Assembly: GCA_017506865.1 (NCBI GenBank)
Contig: JAFCMP010000446.1
Span: 558,001 to 622,000 of the forward strand
Direction: 5' to 3'
DNA: 64,000 bases
Source: Tribonema minus
Lineage: Eukaryota > Sar > Xanthophyceae > Tribonematales > Tribonemataceae
In this document: positions 17,191-59,053 of the stretch, piece by piece
How the letters are laid out: the number at the start of each line of letters is the position of its first letter
How positions within the stretch are numbered: position 1 is the stretch's first letter
The notes under the pieces: generated by a model
Databases searched by the model: none
What the model was told of the DNA's origin: nothing
Seen by the model: the letters and a program-made list of their open reading frames with translations, nothing else
Translations under genes and position numbers: made by a program

Positions 17191-20100
17191 ATGCACCTTA
17201 AGCAGCGGTCATTGAAGCCTTCCAAGGCTCTCAGCTCTGTTAGGAATGAAGAGGAGCTGCGGGAGCTCCTGGCGGGCAGGCGGCGACAGGTGAGCGATTT
17301 ATTCGTTTTACACGAGTTGCTTGTGAGATCTTATGCCAGCAGCTAGAGTGGGAGCTGACTGATAGACAGACGCTGAGGCTTGACAAGCCAGTCGTAAGAT
17401 TTCAGCAGCTGTCGATGCGTGCCTGCTCAAAATGTGCCATCACCAGCCGATCAAGTCACATCGTGGCTGAAGGGGCTGGCTGCCGCTGCCGCCCCCCCCG
17501 CCCCCCCCCGCCCGCCGCTGCCAATGCGCCACGCCAAGCAGTCCTTTGTGGTGAACATGCAGCATGCACCGTAAACTCGACAAGAGACTCCAAATTGCAA
17601 GTTTAAAGTAGTTGGACGTTTTTGTACTGCCGCAGCTCTGCTTAGGCACAAGCAAACATTGAGCCTGCGCCTTCACGACAGGTGACGGCAGGCGCCGACC
17701 TGCGCATGTGCTGTACAAGCCCATGTGCTCAAAGTCGAATGAAATCATGAAGGTTTTAGCTGGCTTGTGTATTACACCGATAGGTGTTTGCCAGAAATGC
17801 CGTTCCTCTGCAATAATGTGACCATTCTGCTGACCAAGGTCCCTCACACACACTTGACAAGGGCTAACAATCGCGCGCATCACCAGCTCTCAGTGTTGCC
17901 ATTTGCGCCTTACATTACCAAATGCGTGAAGCTCAGCAGCATTGTGCTTGGACGCAAACAGCAAGCAGGCGCCTGTGGAGTAGATTGGGGTTGTTGCAGT
18001 ATCGCCCATCAGCAAGGAAAATTGAATGCAACCACGTTTTTCAATTGGGTACGTATGCCAACTGCAGAGGGACGCACATGAGGCGCGCTGCGTTCTGTCA
18101 TCATGGCTCACGGGCAGTGGAGTCAGCGTCAGGGCTTGATCACGCTCGGCGATGGGGTGGGAGCAGTCAGTGGCACACTTCATGACATCACTAATCTTTT
18201 ACATGCACTCAGCGACCAGCAAAATTGAAGGTGTGTTCCGCCGGCGTCAGGGCCGCCGACTGCAAGTCGTACACTCATACATACCTACGTCCATCGCTGC
18301 AGGCGCGCGTCGCGCGCCGCGAGAGTTATCGCGCGGTCAGGGTGTGAGGGGCAGGTATGCTTAGGGATCACAACGGTAGGTATCAAGGATCAGGGCACCA
18401 CCTGAATCGTGCCTTAGGGTTAGGGTTAGGGTTGATGATGTTTGAGGGGTGCGCGAAGGGGAACTTGAATTCAAGGTGGGGCACCATGATGCATCATCAC
18501 ATGGCATCCACGCTTCGTATCTCTGTTTCCGACCCCAAACTCGAACCCTTACCTGATCGTTACACCAAACTTAGCCTTGACCCTGCTGCGCGCAGGTGCT
18601 TGCGCAGCGCGGAGCAGCAGGGGCGCGAGGAGGCACAGGCGGGCGCGCGCGAGGCGTACCGCTCTGATCATTCATACGTACATCCCCCCCCCCCCCCCAA
18701 TAAAAGTCAAGATCAGGGCGCAATCATCAACTGCATCGTAAGAGCCTAATCTTTCTACGTACCTCGATTCCACACTGCGCGCAGGTGCTCGCGCAGCACT
18801 CGCAGCAGGGGTGCGAGGAGGCGCAGGCCGACGCGCGCGAGGCGTGCCGCTCCAATCATTCATACCTACATACCCCCCCCCCCCCCCCCCCCCCCATACA
18901 AGTGAACATCAGGGCGCCACCACTAACAGCATCATACTTACCCTGCACGAGCAGGTGCTCGCGCAGCACGCGCAGCAGGGCGCGAGGAGGCGCAGGCGGA
19001 CGCGCGCGAGGCCTACCACTTCAATTCTTCATACCTACATACCCCCCCCCCCCCACACACACACACACACACAACACACAAAAGTCAAGATGTAGAGCCA
19101 CCTAATAGCTGCATCGCACCCACTCTTACGTTCCTTTCGTACCCTGCCGCAGGTGCTCGCGCAGCACGCGCAGCAAGGCCGCGAGGAGGCGCAGGCCGAC
19201 GCGCGCGAGGCGTACCGCTCCAAGTCGCGCCTGCGCGAGCAGCTCTCGCTGCAGCTCCTCACGCACCTCGACAGCGCTCAGATGGCGTCCATCAAGGCAG
19301 AGTTCCAGGCGCGTGGCAGCGAAGTCGACATGCAGGGCTTCTGCTCCATCATGGAGGCGCACCTGCCGGGGGGGGGGGCGCCGGCGTACACGATTGGGGG
19401 CGGGGGAGGGGGCGGGGAGGAGGGGGGGGGGGGCGGGGGGGGGGGTACCGTGAGCCGGCTGGAGGTGGTGGCGAACCTCGCGGAGCTGTTCCGGGAGGTG
19501 GATATCAATGGCGACGGCATGATGGAGTGGTGAGCTTGCGCTGAGCGCTGCTGTGTGTTTCGGAGAGTTGAAGTTGAAGTACCCATTGGAGCTCTGTGTG
19601 TGTGTGTAGGGCCTGCTGCGCAGTTGTGGGCGTGAGTGCGTGCATGTGGCTTTGGGTGAATATACGAGCGAGTGGTCAAGCGCGCTAGTGGGGGCCTAGT
19701 GATCAAGCCCGCAAACGCACCTGGGATGCACTCGACTTGCGTCCCCATGTGATGGCCTGCCGTGTGGTACCGACTAGCCAGTCAGCTGCAACGCAGCAGG
19801 CGCGGCAAATTTGTCACTGGCAATGATCAACGTAGACATCAGCGGCGACCAAGAAGGTGGTCACAGCTGGGGTTACAGTTAGGATTAGGGTCAGGGTTAG
19901 GGTTAGGGCTCCTGTGTATGCGGTGCACTGTGGAGAAGGCATGCTCACTGCCCCCATGCGCTGGTGTGCCCTCCAACACGTTGTTTGAAGACAATGTGCG
20001 CCACCCTCTGAAATAATGTCAGGCACATACAAATACGCCAAAGGAGCGCTGGCGTTCGCGCGGTCGCACTGCAGAGAGGGCGCAGCAGATGCGCAGTCCG

Positions 20101-58700: not shown

Positions 58701-59053
58701 GCAGGTCCACCAGTGCGTGCTGTGCATCGCTTCAACACGTGCGCCAGCTTGGCTTGCATGCCAGGCAGCCCTCGGCGAACAATGTCAGATCATAACAGCC
58801 ACTTGTCAGATCATGAAACACCACTTGTGGCGCCCGCAATCACGCCGGGTACCGCCCTTTGCGCTGCAACCACTGATTGTCGATTGCGTGATGTGCGTGT
58901 GCTGCCGCCGCCGCCATGCAGGTCCACCAGCGCGTGCCGTGCATCCTGGGGAGCCGCGACGACGTCGCCGAGATGCGCAAGTACTACGAGACCATGTCTA
59001 GCGCGGAGCTCGATGCGCGCTGCGCGTCGCGTCTCACCGAAGAAGCCGAGTAG
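46776..59053 (+). CDS. FBP: Fructose-1,6-bisphosphatase, plastid-type
   Basis: Hydrolyses fructose 1,6-bisphosphate to fructose 6-phosphate and phosphate. Coding exons: 46776-46894, 47347-47477, 48463-48657, 49458-49625, 51018-51073, 51910-52009, 52510-52613, 53926-53997, 55032-55077, 55925-56005, 56978-57087, 58922-59053; every phase closes, 437 residues. Residues 1-18 form a signal peptide, and C18^F19-VTP matches the heterokont plastid-entry motif. Metal and substrate motifs are ASEEED (155-160), [11 protein letters not shown] (189-199), [25 protein letters not shown] and [19 protein letters not shown]. The redox loop is present but short: Cys217 (PEEC) and Cys232 (ARQC) match the thioredoxin-controlled pair of plant plastid enzymes, while the third Cys of those is Leu237. 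Intron 3 uses a GC donor (GCGAGT at 48658). Nearly all introns carry copies of exon edges. The family call is secure; plastid location is inferred from the presequence. Confidence 0.95.
48000..48375 (+). repeat. Three decayed upstream copies of FBPase exon 3 start
   Basis: Copies of the start of exon 3 (coding [22 protein letters not shown]) lie at about 48003-48070, 48138-48215 and 48297-48373, before the true exon at 48463. Each keeps a CGCAG or CGGAG acceptor region, and the spacers repeat GTCACAATCAATG and ACTTCAAACTTGA. Spacing is about 130-165 bp. Confidence 0.9.
48725..48960 (+). repeat. Two downstream copies of FBPase exon 3 end
   Basis: The exon end (coding [12 protein letters not shown]) recurs at about 48750-48797 and, more decayed, 48915-48957. 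The first copy keeps the GC donor (CAGGCGAG) of the true exon; the second has a standard GT (CAGGTGAG). The intervening DNA in both cases carries a CCCTAACCCTA-like tract. Confidence 0.85.
49255..49322 (+). repeat. Upstream copy of FBPase exon 4 start
   Basis: The segment repeats ACAGGCAAGCTGGCGAC and the following codons ([16 protein letters not shown]), about 200 bp before the true exon 4 at 49458. It is disrupted at the end. Confidence 0.85.
49685..50690 (+). repeat. Ten copies of FBPase exon 4 end in intron 4
   Basis: The last 50-60 bases of exon 4 (coding [17 protein letters not shown]) plus the donor GGTGAGCAGGCTGGTAG are repeated at about 49700, 49785, 49865, 49975, 50065, 50160, 50247, 50368, 50550 and 50630, at roughly 80-180 bp spacing, before intron 4 continues to exon 5 at 51018. 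The copies decay with distance; several keep an intact GTGAG donor. Confidence 0.95.
51600..52320 (+). repeat. Copies of FBPase exon 6 on both sides
   Basis: The acceptor CTCTCAGGACA with the first codons is copied at about 51612 and 51738 before the true exon 6 (51910-52009). The exon end (coding [15 protein letters not shown]) and its CACGTGAG donor are copied at about 52083-52136 and 52262-52316. Confidence 0.85.
52640..52720. repeat. TTAGGG tracts in FBPase intron 7
   Basis: 52646-52665 and 52697-52718 carry TTAGGG units in the G-rich orientation, separated by a single inverted AACCCTAA piece. They lie 30-110 bp downstream of the donor at 52614. Confidence 0.85.
56440..56977 (+). repeat. 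Five tandem copies of FBPase exon 11 acceptor
   Basis: Copies starting at about 56461, 56572, 56670, 56772 and 56875 repeat the acceptor and first 35 bases of exon 11 (coding [10 protein letters not shown]) with a nearly constant period of about 100 bp up to the true start at 56978. Each unit also contains TGTTGAAGTACAC..AGTT and TCGCTTTT.GCGC. Most keep the TTAGGCAAGCTGC or GCAGGCAAGCTGC junction. Confidence 0.95.
57140..57905 (+). repeat. Six downstream copies of FBPase exon 11 end
   Basis: Copies of the exon end (coding [13 protein letters not shown]) and donor AAGAAGGTGAGC lie at about 57160-57203, 57294-57333, 57454-57495, 57628-57668, 57735-57775 and 57850-57885. They are increasingly decayed with distance from the true donor at 57088, and each is followed by a GCCATGGTATGTATG-like stretch. 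Confidence 0.9.
58680..58735 (+). repeat. Upstream copy of FBPase exon 12 start
   Basis: GTGCAGGTCCACCAGTGCGT and following bases repeat the acceptor and start of exon 12 (VHQRVPCI, here VHQCVLCI), 240 bp before the true start at 58922. Flanking text with GCGCTGC.ACCACTGATTGTC also recurs several times between 58380 and 58885. Confidence 0.85.

What the first reader, a model, noticed from the sequence alone, without database searches (positions are those of the whole stretch)
17191..59053. Introns built from tandem decayed copies of exon-intron junctions
Seen directly: in both large genes most introns contain copies of the neighbouring exon's edge. Copies of exon starts lie upstream of the true acceptor and copies of exon ends downstream of the true donor, 1 to 10 per junction, with the splice dinucleotides often kept. 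At least 12 of 22 exons of the WD40 gene and 6 of 12 of FBPase are affected. Inference: introns here grow by repeated tandem duplication across splice junctions, with splicing settling on one copy. This differs from exon shuffling (whole exon plus full introns) and from introner insertion. It leaves arrays of decoy splice sites and could allow alternative or recursive splicing. I know of no named system of this type.
Basis: partly seen in the sequence, partly recalled or inferred. Interest (0 to 1): 0.92.

Follow-up and report, generated by a model that had tools for sequence, protein, structure and literature searches.

The report
Exon-edge copies inside growing introns
In this alga-like genome the introns pick up short head-to-tail DNA duplications, and when a duplication overlaps an exon's edge it leaves a decaying copy of that edge, splice signal included, inside the neighbouring intron; it shows how introns can grow and fill with false splice sites, though duplication itself is an ordinary process.

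Summary
I modelled 14 kinesin and 4 CCT genes of the same genome, plus FBPase. About a quarter of kinesin exon edges have a copy in the intron they touch: starts upstream 26% of 73, ends downstream 24% of 74. Opposite sides (0 of 57, 1 of 65) and exon middles (0 of 57) have almost none; other genes' introns give under 0.5%.

The copies come from local tandem duplication (169 direct, 5 inverted pairs in kinesin gene spans). But duplication is not aimed at junctions: 11-16% of ordinary intron 40-mers also have a second copy in their intron, no more often near splice sites than deep inside. Edges stand out partly because the real exon is conserved. Which copy is spliced follows from geometry.

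Copies decay roughly neutrally, with frameshifting indels; decoy splice sites are neither clearly purged nor preserved. A synonymous excess between exon and copy, and fast loss of intron-side similarity, stay unexplained. I call it a strong case of tandem-duplication intron growth, not a new system.

The parts
19153..19529 (+). WD40/EF-hand gene exon (EF-hand part) whose start is copied upstream
   Evidence: ab initio model; reading frame
18596..18653 (+). copy of the start of exon 19153
   Evidence: edge search score 69 against the 18785 copy; pairs
18785..18841 (+). copy of the start of exon 19153, taken as an exon by the ab initio model
18955..19012 (+). copy of the start of exon 19153
   Evidence: edge search score 101
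20857..21009 (+). WD40 gene exon whose end is copied downstream (4 copies: 21344-21384, 21462-21515, 21599-21626, 21836-21869)
21344..21869 (+). stretch holding the four copies of the end of exon 20857-21009
   Evidence: scores 57, 93, 39, 58
25805..26002 (+). WD40 gene exon (WD repeats; relative of PDB 8tid_Z) whose end is copied downstream
26079..26705 (+). array of copies of the end of exon 25805-26002 (26082-26141, copy within 26174-26251, 26488-26543, 26619-26674)
28479..28592 (+). WD40 gene exon with end copy in a 71-bp tandem unit (28617-28663)
28617..28686 (+). second unit of the 71-bp tandem duplication spanning a donor
   Evidence: 28546-28616 vs 28617-28686, 87%
31088..31220 (+). 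WD40 gene exon with two end copies downstream
31328..31475 (+). two copies of the end of exon 31088-31220 (31328-31385, 31436-31475)
   Evidence: scores 81, 65
37402..37575 (+). WD40 gene exon with copies on both sides
37229..37296 (+). copy of the start of exon 37402-37575
   Evidence: score 80
37704..37927 (+). two copies of the end of exon 37402-37575
   Evidence: scores 74, 52
40449..40564 (+). WD40 gene exon; start copies at 39604-39641 and 40197-40235 (the latter taken as an exon ab initio), end copy at 40940-40990
41222..41332 (+). WD40 gene exon; start copy 41127-41159, end copy 41438-41463
   Evidence: scores 61, 42
48471..48657 (+). FBPase exon (GC donor); three start copies upstream, two end copies downstream
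   Evidence: relation to FBPase
48014..48366 (+). three copies of the start of exon 48471 (48014-48067, 48156-48209, about 48312-48365)
   Evidence: pairs; read
48745..48954 (+). two copies of the end of exon 48657 (48745-48792, 48928-48954)
   Evidence: scores 81, 44
49458..49625 (+). FBPase active-site exon (FDPLDGSSN), copied on both sides
49266..49319 (+). copy of the start of exon 49458
   Evidence: score 93
49696..50664 (+). nine copies of the end of exon 49625 with donor: 49696, 49855, 49974, 50060, 50168, 50247, 50365, 50533, 50630
   Evidence: scores 38-94; read
51910..52009 (+). FBPase exon with two end copies downstream
52084..52311 (+). two copies of the end of exon 52009 (52084-52130, 52261-52311)
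   Evidence: scores 69, 62
56978..57099 (+). FBPase exon with start copies in the 103-bp array upstream and end copies downstream
56425..57012 (+). 103-bp tandem array (5.7 units) holding start copies of exon 56978
57164..57683 (+). three copies of the exon end (57164-57220, 57296-57351, 57627-57683)

Best explanation
Introns in this genome undergo frequent small head-to-tail tandem duplication, with units mostly about 100-300 bp. Duplications wholly inside an intron, or overlapping only one edge of an exon, leave the spliced message unchanged and can drift to fixation; those inside exons or covering a whole exon are removed by selection. When a unit straddles a junction the outer copy of the exon edge falls in the intron with its splice site. 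Only the copy joined to the exon body can give the right message, so the true copy is always the last on the acceptor side and the first on the donor side. The intronic copy then decays and can be duplicated again into arrays. Shown: local direct repeats, polarity, generality in the sample, flat distribution along introns, roughly neutral decay, longer introns where copies exist. Inferred: selection as the filter; break repair with fill-in (the staggered-break, Pol alpha-primase/CST type) as the source of the duplications; decoys ignored because splicing reads whole exons, or their misuse tolerated.
For: Direct against inverted pairs within kinesin gene spans 169:5 (a further 25:1 outside the spans); window pairs within 2 kb 89:5. 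Polarity and controls: left edge to upstream intron 26% of 73, right edge to downstream 24% of 74, left to downstream 0 of 57, right to upstream 1 of 65, exon middles 0 of 27 and 0 of 30. Not junction-targeted: intron 40-mers (taken every 20 bp, so not independent) with another copy in the same intron 11.4, 13.2, 12.9, 15.6, 15.4 and 15.8% from nearest to farthest distance bin (n=308, 348, 356, 674, 1059, 805), control 0 of 728. Complete head-to-tail units: 28546-28616/28617-28686, 36373-36492/36493-36614, 38526-38684/38685-38846. Copies carry 30 indels, all of 1, 2 or 4 bp, so they are not kept in frame. Acceptor copies read AG in 34 of 40; donor copies read GT in 30 and GC in 7 of 42; drift at 6.6% per non-degenerate site would leave about 87% (my arithmetic). 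No copy lies at the far end of its intron (0 of 82). A 4-kb FBPase query of the own genome returned its own locus, paralogue exons and CAG runs (40 of 66 candidates were scored). Introns with an edge copy are longer. Of nine near-perfect tandem pairs, six overlap by 0-6 bp beyond the unit and three by 16-19 bp.
Against: Mismatches between exon and copy are more synonymous than simple neutral decay allows: 4-fold/0-fold ratio 2.80 (95% CI 2.21-3.48) where 2 is the limit; on G/C sites only it is 2.26 (1.76-2.79), compatible with 2. Intron-side similarity is lost very fast: identity about 0.88 in the exon but 0.36-0.55 from +6 of the intron on the donor side (ungapped). Part is selection on the exonic side (intron-selected pairs give exonic 0.893 against intronic 0.863, but only 5 of 25 pairs qualified). 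Counting only GT, donor copies keep the dinucleotide in 30 of 42 (71%), below the drift figure. Junction-straddling units under 97 bp: 0 of 44 edges against 13 of 70 intron-internal events (p=0.0016), hinting at selection against near decoys; a laxer search finds an edge copy inside the first 102 bp of intron at 4 of 204 junctions, and the WD40 gene has two exceptions (spacings 71 and 95 bp). Rates differ between genes: in L021 no edge reaches score 20, and some stretches hardly have repeats (L044 1 of 97 40-mers).
Confidence: 0.8

Rival explanations
1. Duplication is targeted to splice junctions, for example by breaks tied to splicing or to the exon-intron change in base composition.
For: Exon edges have copies more often (23% of 152) than intron 40-mers (11-16%). 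In the window the coding-poor stretch 4-14 kb is nearly free of local copies (0 of 90 plus 3% of 133).
Against: Copy density is flat along introns and slightly lower next to junctions. The edge excess is expected because only one partner of an exon-copy pair decays freely.
Confidence: 0.08
2. As the main account, but copies are refreshed by gene conversion from the exon, or were born by recombination between diverged alleles, so that exonic parts stay similar and differ mainly at synonymous sites while intron parts diverge.
For: Youngest copies (<5% different, n=14) differ at codon positions 1,2,3 as 1, 4, 14; 4-fold/0-fold ratio 2.80; some copies 95-100% identical in the exon with little intron similarity, e.g. 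L029 exon 3 and the nearer copy of L022 exon 3.
Against: Copy-against-copy pairs show a similar exon-intron contrast, the G/C-site ratio is compatible with 2, and no second haplotype of the FBPase locus turned up in the own-genome search to test it.
Confidence: 0.25
3. The copies are functional: alternative, recursive or buffering splice sites kept by selection.
For: Splice dinucleotides are often kept (AG 34 of 40, GT 30 and GC 7 of 42) and some copies look coding enough to be taken as exons by a codon-based model.
Against: Dinucleotide retention is no higher than drift predicts; none of 30 indels is a multiple of three; nearest-copy distances show no frame preference (16/12/16).
Confidence: 0.05
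4. Introns gained by tandem duplication of exon segments, or introner insertion.
For: Both are known routes to introns holding duplicated sequence.
Against: Intron gain by duplication would put the copy at the far end of the intron: 0 of 82. Introners would recur at other loci: none seen for FBPase among the scored candidates.
Confidence: 0.02
5. Assembly artefact.
For: Tandem arrays can be misassembled, and no reads were available to check.
Against: The pairs are about 65-98% identical with scattered differences, and edge copies sit in 13 of 18 non-window gene models.
Confidence: 0.02

Closest known systems
Small tandem duplications from repair of staggered breaks (PMC8355091, passages read)
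   Same: Head-to-tail duplication, described there as independent of repeats or homology; a cause of genome expansion.
   Different: Described there as short (<100 bp) and studied in mouse and human cells; here fixed, older, mostly longer, recurrent in introns, enzymes untested.
Intron gain by tandem genomic duplication of an AGGT-bearing exon segment (PMC3443670 and PMC2891723 passages read; PMC4974935 listing and start of abstract only)
   Same: Tandem duplication of coding sequence makes intronic sequence resembling the exon.
   Different: That creates a new intron with the copy at its far end; here an existing intron is lengthened and the copy keeps its own splice site near its own junction.
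Introners (PMC9860276 and PMC7789003, listing and start of abstract only)
   Same: Recurrent sequence inside introns of algae and protists.
   Different: Introners are dispersed families; these copies were found only at their own locus.
Whole-exon duplication / exon shuffling (recalled)
   Same: Exon sequence appears in an intron.
   Different: Here one edge is copied; no exon middle was found in an adjacent intron (0 of 57).

Membership tests
Small tandem duplication in introns | copies in direct, not inverted, orientation and local | tested here: met
   169 direct, 5 inverted within kinesin gene spans
Small tandem duplication in introns | head-to-tail units | tested here: met
   contiguous pairs such as 28546-28616/28617-28686 and 38526-38684/38685-38846 and nine near-perfect tandem pairs; older pairs cover less than their spacing and cannot show it
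Small tandem duplication in introns | made by break repair with fill-in | not testable with these tools
   only the short overlaps at most joins are consistent (0-6 bp in 6 of 9, 16-19 bp in 3 of 9)
Junction-targeted duplication (reader) | duplication density highest at splice junctions | tested here: not met
   11-16% in all distance bins, lowest nearest the junction
Intron gain by tandem genomic duplication | copy junction at the opposite end of the intron | tested here: not met
   0 of 82
Introner | similar copies at many unrelated loci | tested here: not met
   FBPase 4-kb query: own locus, paralogue exons and CAG runs among the 40 of 66 candidates scored; one locus tested
Whole-exon duplication | whole exon, or its middle, copied | tested here: not met
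   0 of 27 and 0 of 30 middles; opposite-side edges 0 of 57 and 1 of 65
Functional alternative splice sites | copies used in transcripts | not testable with these tools
   no RNA data

The most novel reading that the evidence does not exclude
Introns of this lineage are shaped by a specially active duplication process tied to transcription or splicing, exon-edge copies are renewed by exchange with the true exon, and the spliceosome must tell the true site from nearly identical decoys about 100-300 bp away by exon definition, with near decoys (under about 100 bp) weeded out by selection.
Probability: 0.12. Interest if true: 0.82.

Novelty: new variant of a known kind. Interest (0 to 1): 0.55.

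Why it matters
It makes an open question testable: how introns lengthen without mobile elements, and how splicing ignores decoys that begin as exact copies of a real site. One genome offers many natural splice-site duplications of graded age and distance, the design one would build to measure how the true site is chosen. It is also a warning for annotation: a codon-based gene model took three decoys in one gene as exons.

Tried and rejected
Rejected: introner or mobile-element origin; intron gain by exon-segment duplication; whole-exon duplication; coding constraint on copies (first suspected from the synonymous bias; the indels argue against it); the idea that the palindromic word TTGAAGT/ACTTCAA or telomere-like repeats mark duplication joins (note): the word's contexts differ, and telomere-like words are as common in introns without edge copies (1.09 per kb) as with them (1.19). 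I did not test TTGAAGT itself against joins.

Withdrawn: one search printed a score of 0 beyond the exonic end of 80 of 82 copies, and my note took that as proof of sharp unit ends. The copies were cut out by local alignment, so this score is zero nearly by construction and proves nothing. Sharp ends rest on the printed alignments, read by eye, and on the contiguous pairs.

Led nowhere: Rfam scan of the window (0 matches); Pfam scan of ten large ORFs (one sub-threshold hit); naming the organism (psaA fragment matches many PDB photosystems; passages of a Phaeocystis genome paper read for comparison, PMC11347835; a text search for one PDB code gave nothing useful); an intron/exon identity comparison with free-end alignment whose baseline of 0.81 made it useless and which crashed, replaced. 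The first ab initio model (95 exons) was over-split and replaced by the penalised one.

Not settled: whether introns are richer in duplications than intergenic DNA. Window 0-14 kb is poor (0-3% of 40-mers), but its genes are not annotated and other stretches vary widely (L043 56 of 201, L044 1 of 97, L045 6 of 165, L046 29 of 218; intronless-kinesin and FBPase-family loci 0 to 33%).

Rows dropped before counts: exons under 60 bp (under 40 bp), introns under 100 bp or 300 bp, low-complexity 40-mers, 12 of 94 copies not reaching within 6 bp of the junction, intron-internal shifts seen only once. The kinesin models contain a few doubtful tiny exons (e.g. 15 bp in L022, probably a decoy).
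Full report
Setting. The window is part of a 158-Mb eukaryotic genome in 554 contigs (C446:558001-622000). It holds a WD40/EF-hand gene, for which the 1079-residue 'EF hand protein' chain 8tid_Z ranks second in two PDB searches behind a WD40 repeat protein, and a fructose-1,6-bisphosphatase gene.

Observation. A self-comparison of the window shows many direct and few inverted local repeats (89 to 5 within 2 kb). 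In FBPase the pattern can be read by eye: the active-site exon ending at 49625 is followed by copies of its last 40-60 bp with the donor site, at 49696, 49855, 49974, 50060, 50168, 50247, 50365, 50533 and 50630. In my edge search 4 of 9 modelled FBPase exons and 9 of 17 WD40 exons carry edge copies, one of them exactly at the threshold.

Generality. For kinesins, 40-bp exon edges were aligned to the introns they touch. Scores of 34 or more: left edge to upstream intron 26% of 73, right edge to downstream intron 24% of 74; left to downstream 0 of 57, right to upstream 1 of 65; exon middles 0 of 27 and 0 of 30; other genes' introns printed 0.00 of 1460 and 1480, although at least six control scores reach 35-45. 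It is uneven: L021 has none, and FBPase paralogues on C173 and C312 have few local repeats (0-6% of 40-mers), while two other FBPase-family loci have 20 and 33%.

Nature of the copies. Within kinesin gene spans 169 repeat pairs are direct and 5 inverted. Printed side by side, copies often break off abruptly 30-70 bp into the exon (read by eye). Nearest copies lie 97-710 bp from the true junction, median 181 (44 junctions). Several recent duplications are complete head-to-tail units, for example 28546-28616/28617-28686 across a WD40 donor. Of nine near-perfect tandem pairs, six overlap by 0-6 bp beyond the unit and three by 16-19 bp.

Are junctions special? Taking 40-mers every 20 bp along introns of 300 bp or more, the share with a second copy in the same intron is 11.4% within 40 bp of a junction, then 13.2, 12.9, 15.6, 15.4 and 15.8% further in (n=308 to 1059), against 0 of 728 for other genes. 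Duplication is thus spread along introns. Exon edges reach 23% of 152, which a shared process explains if the exonic partner is conserved and so stays recognisable longer. Introns that hold an edge copy are about twice as long as others (964 against 479 bp), as growth by duplication predicts, though longer introns also offer more room.

How splicing copes. If a unit straddles an acceptor, only the last copy runs on into the rest of the exon; if it straddles a donor, only the first does. The true site is fixed by position. The outer site starts as an identical decoy. Acceptor copies still read AG in 34 of 40; donor copies read GT in 30 and GC in 7 of 42. Drift at 6.6% per non-degenerate site would leave about 87% of dinucleotides. 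So decoys are neither clearly destroyed nor preserved; if only GT counts, the donor side (71%) is somewhat below drift. Junction-straddling units shorter than 97 bp are missing from the 44 modelled junctions while 13 of 70 intron-internal ones are shorter (p=0.0016); a laxer search finds edge copies in the first 102 bp of intron at 4 of 204 junctions, and the WD40 gene has two exceptions (71 and 95 bp). I treat selection against near decoys as a hint.

Decay. Between exon and copy, mismatches fall on codon positions 1, 2, 3 as 117, 82 and 255 of about 1460 sites each. Changes seen only in the exon are 5, 2, 20 (22 junctions with two or more copies), as expected for a conserved gene. Copies have 30 indels, all of 1, 2 or 4 bp, and 4 in-frame stops in 1394 codons: they are not held in frame. 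The 4-fold/0-fold ratio of 2.80 (CI 2.21-3.48) exceeds the neutral limit of 2; on G/C sites it is 2.26 (1.76-2.79). The excess is strongest in young copies (14 of 19 differences at position 3). Birth by exchange between diverged alleles, or gene conversion, could explain it; I could not test either, and no second haplotype of the FBPase locus turned up. Intron-side similarity is lost quickly, above all at donors; part of that is a selection effect, since pairs chosen by their intron side give 0.893 exonic against 0.863 intronic identity (5 of 25 pairs), and copy-copy pairs show a similar contrast.

Comparison with the known. Small tandem duplications from fill-in at staggered breaks are a named mutation class that expands genomes (PMC8355091, passages). 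Intron gain by tandem duplication of an AGGT-bearing exon segment is named too (PMC3443670, PMC2891723, passages), but puts the copy at the far end of a new intron, seen in 0 of 82 here. Introners are dispersed families; the FBPase copies were found at their own locus only, among the candidates that the search scored. In the full-text searches I saw no title or abstract describing introns filled with junction-straddling duplications at this frequency; those searches cover an open-access library and I saw only the top of each list.

Verdict. Real, general in the sample, mostly explained: intron-wide tandem duplication with exon edges as passengers. The density, and the natural series of decoy splice sites, are what make it interesting.

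Noticed in passing
window, e.g. 19568, 21052, 26468, 48255-48270, 56498-56924; introns of L019-L036: The word TTGAAGT/ACTTCAA is strongly over-represented in introns: 106 in 86.8 kb against 8 in 21.4 kb of exons; on the gene strand TTGAAGT occurs 44 times against a mean of 4.6 for its 210 letter permutations. In the window 70 against 6.7 expected. Role unknown.
   Followed up: partly
window 22150-22306, 31283-31320, 33136-33165, 52647-52742 and others: Short interstitial telomere-like runs (TTAGGG/CCCTAA) are common in introns, with little difference between introns with and without edge copies (1.19 and 1.09 per kb).
   Followed up: partly
window 18785-18841, 26174-26251, 40197-40235: Decoy copies taken as exons by a codon-and-splice-site model, so automatic annotation of this genome may contain false exons.
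   Followed up: partly
window 48657 and gene models of L019-L036: GC-AG introns: 8 of 106 donors used for the splice-site model start with GC.
   Followed up: no
window 34746-34931: A 62-unit GGC run coding a long glycine tract inside a WD40-gene exon.
   Followed up: no
L003/L004 positions 1-1000 (C173 and C312): The 5' flanks of two FBPase paralogues look more alike than their exons, while introns look unrelated; C312 has an exon-start copy that C173 lacks (alignment, read by eye).
   Followed up: partly
window 62017-62604: A three-unit 198-bp array, 97% identical, outside the two genes.
   Followed up: no
L009-L012: Short plastid psaA/psaB-family fragments scattered in nuclear contigs.
   Followed up: no
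L044 (C35:400000-409999): A 73% GC stretch with long coding-like segments and almost no local duplications (1 of 97 40-mers).
   Followed up: no
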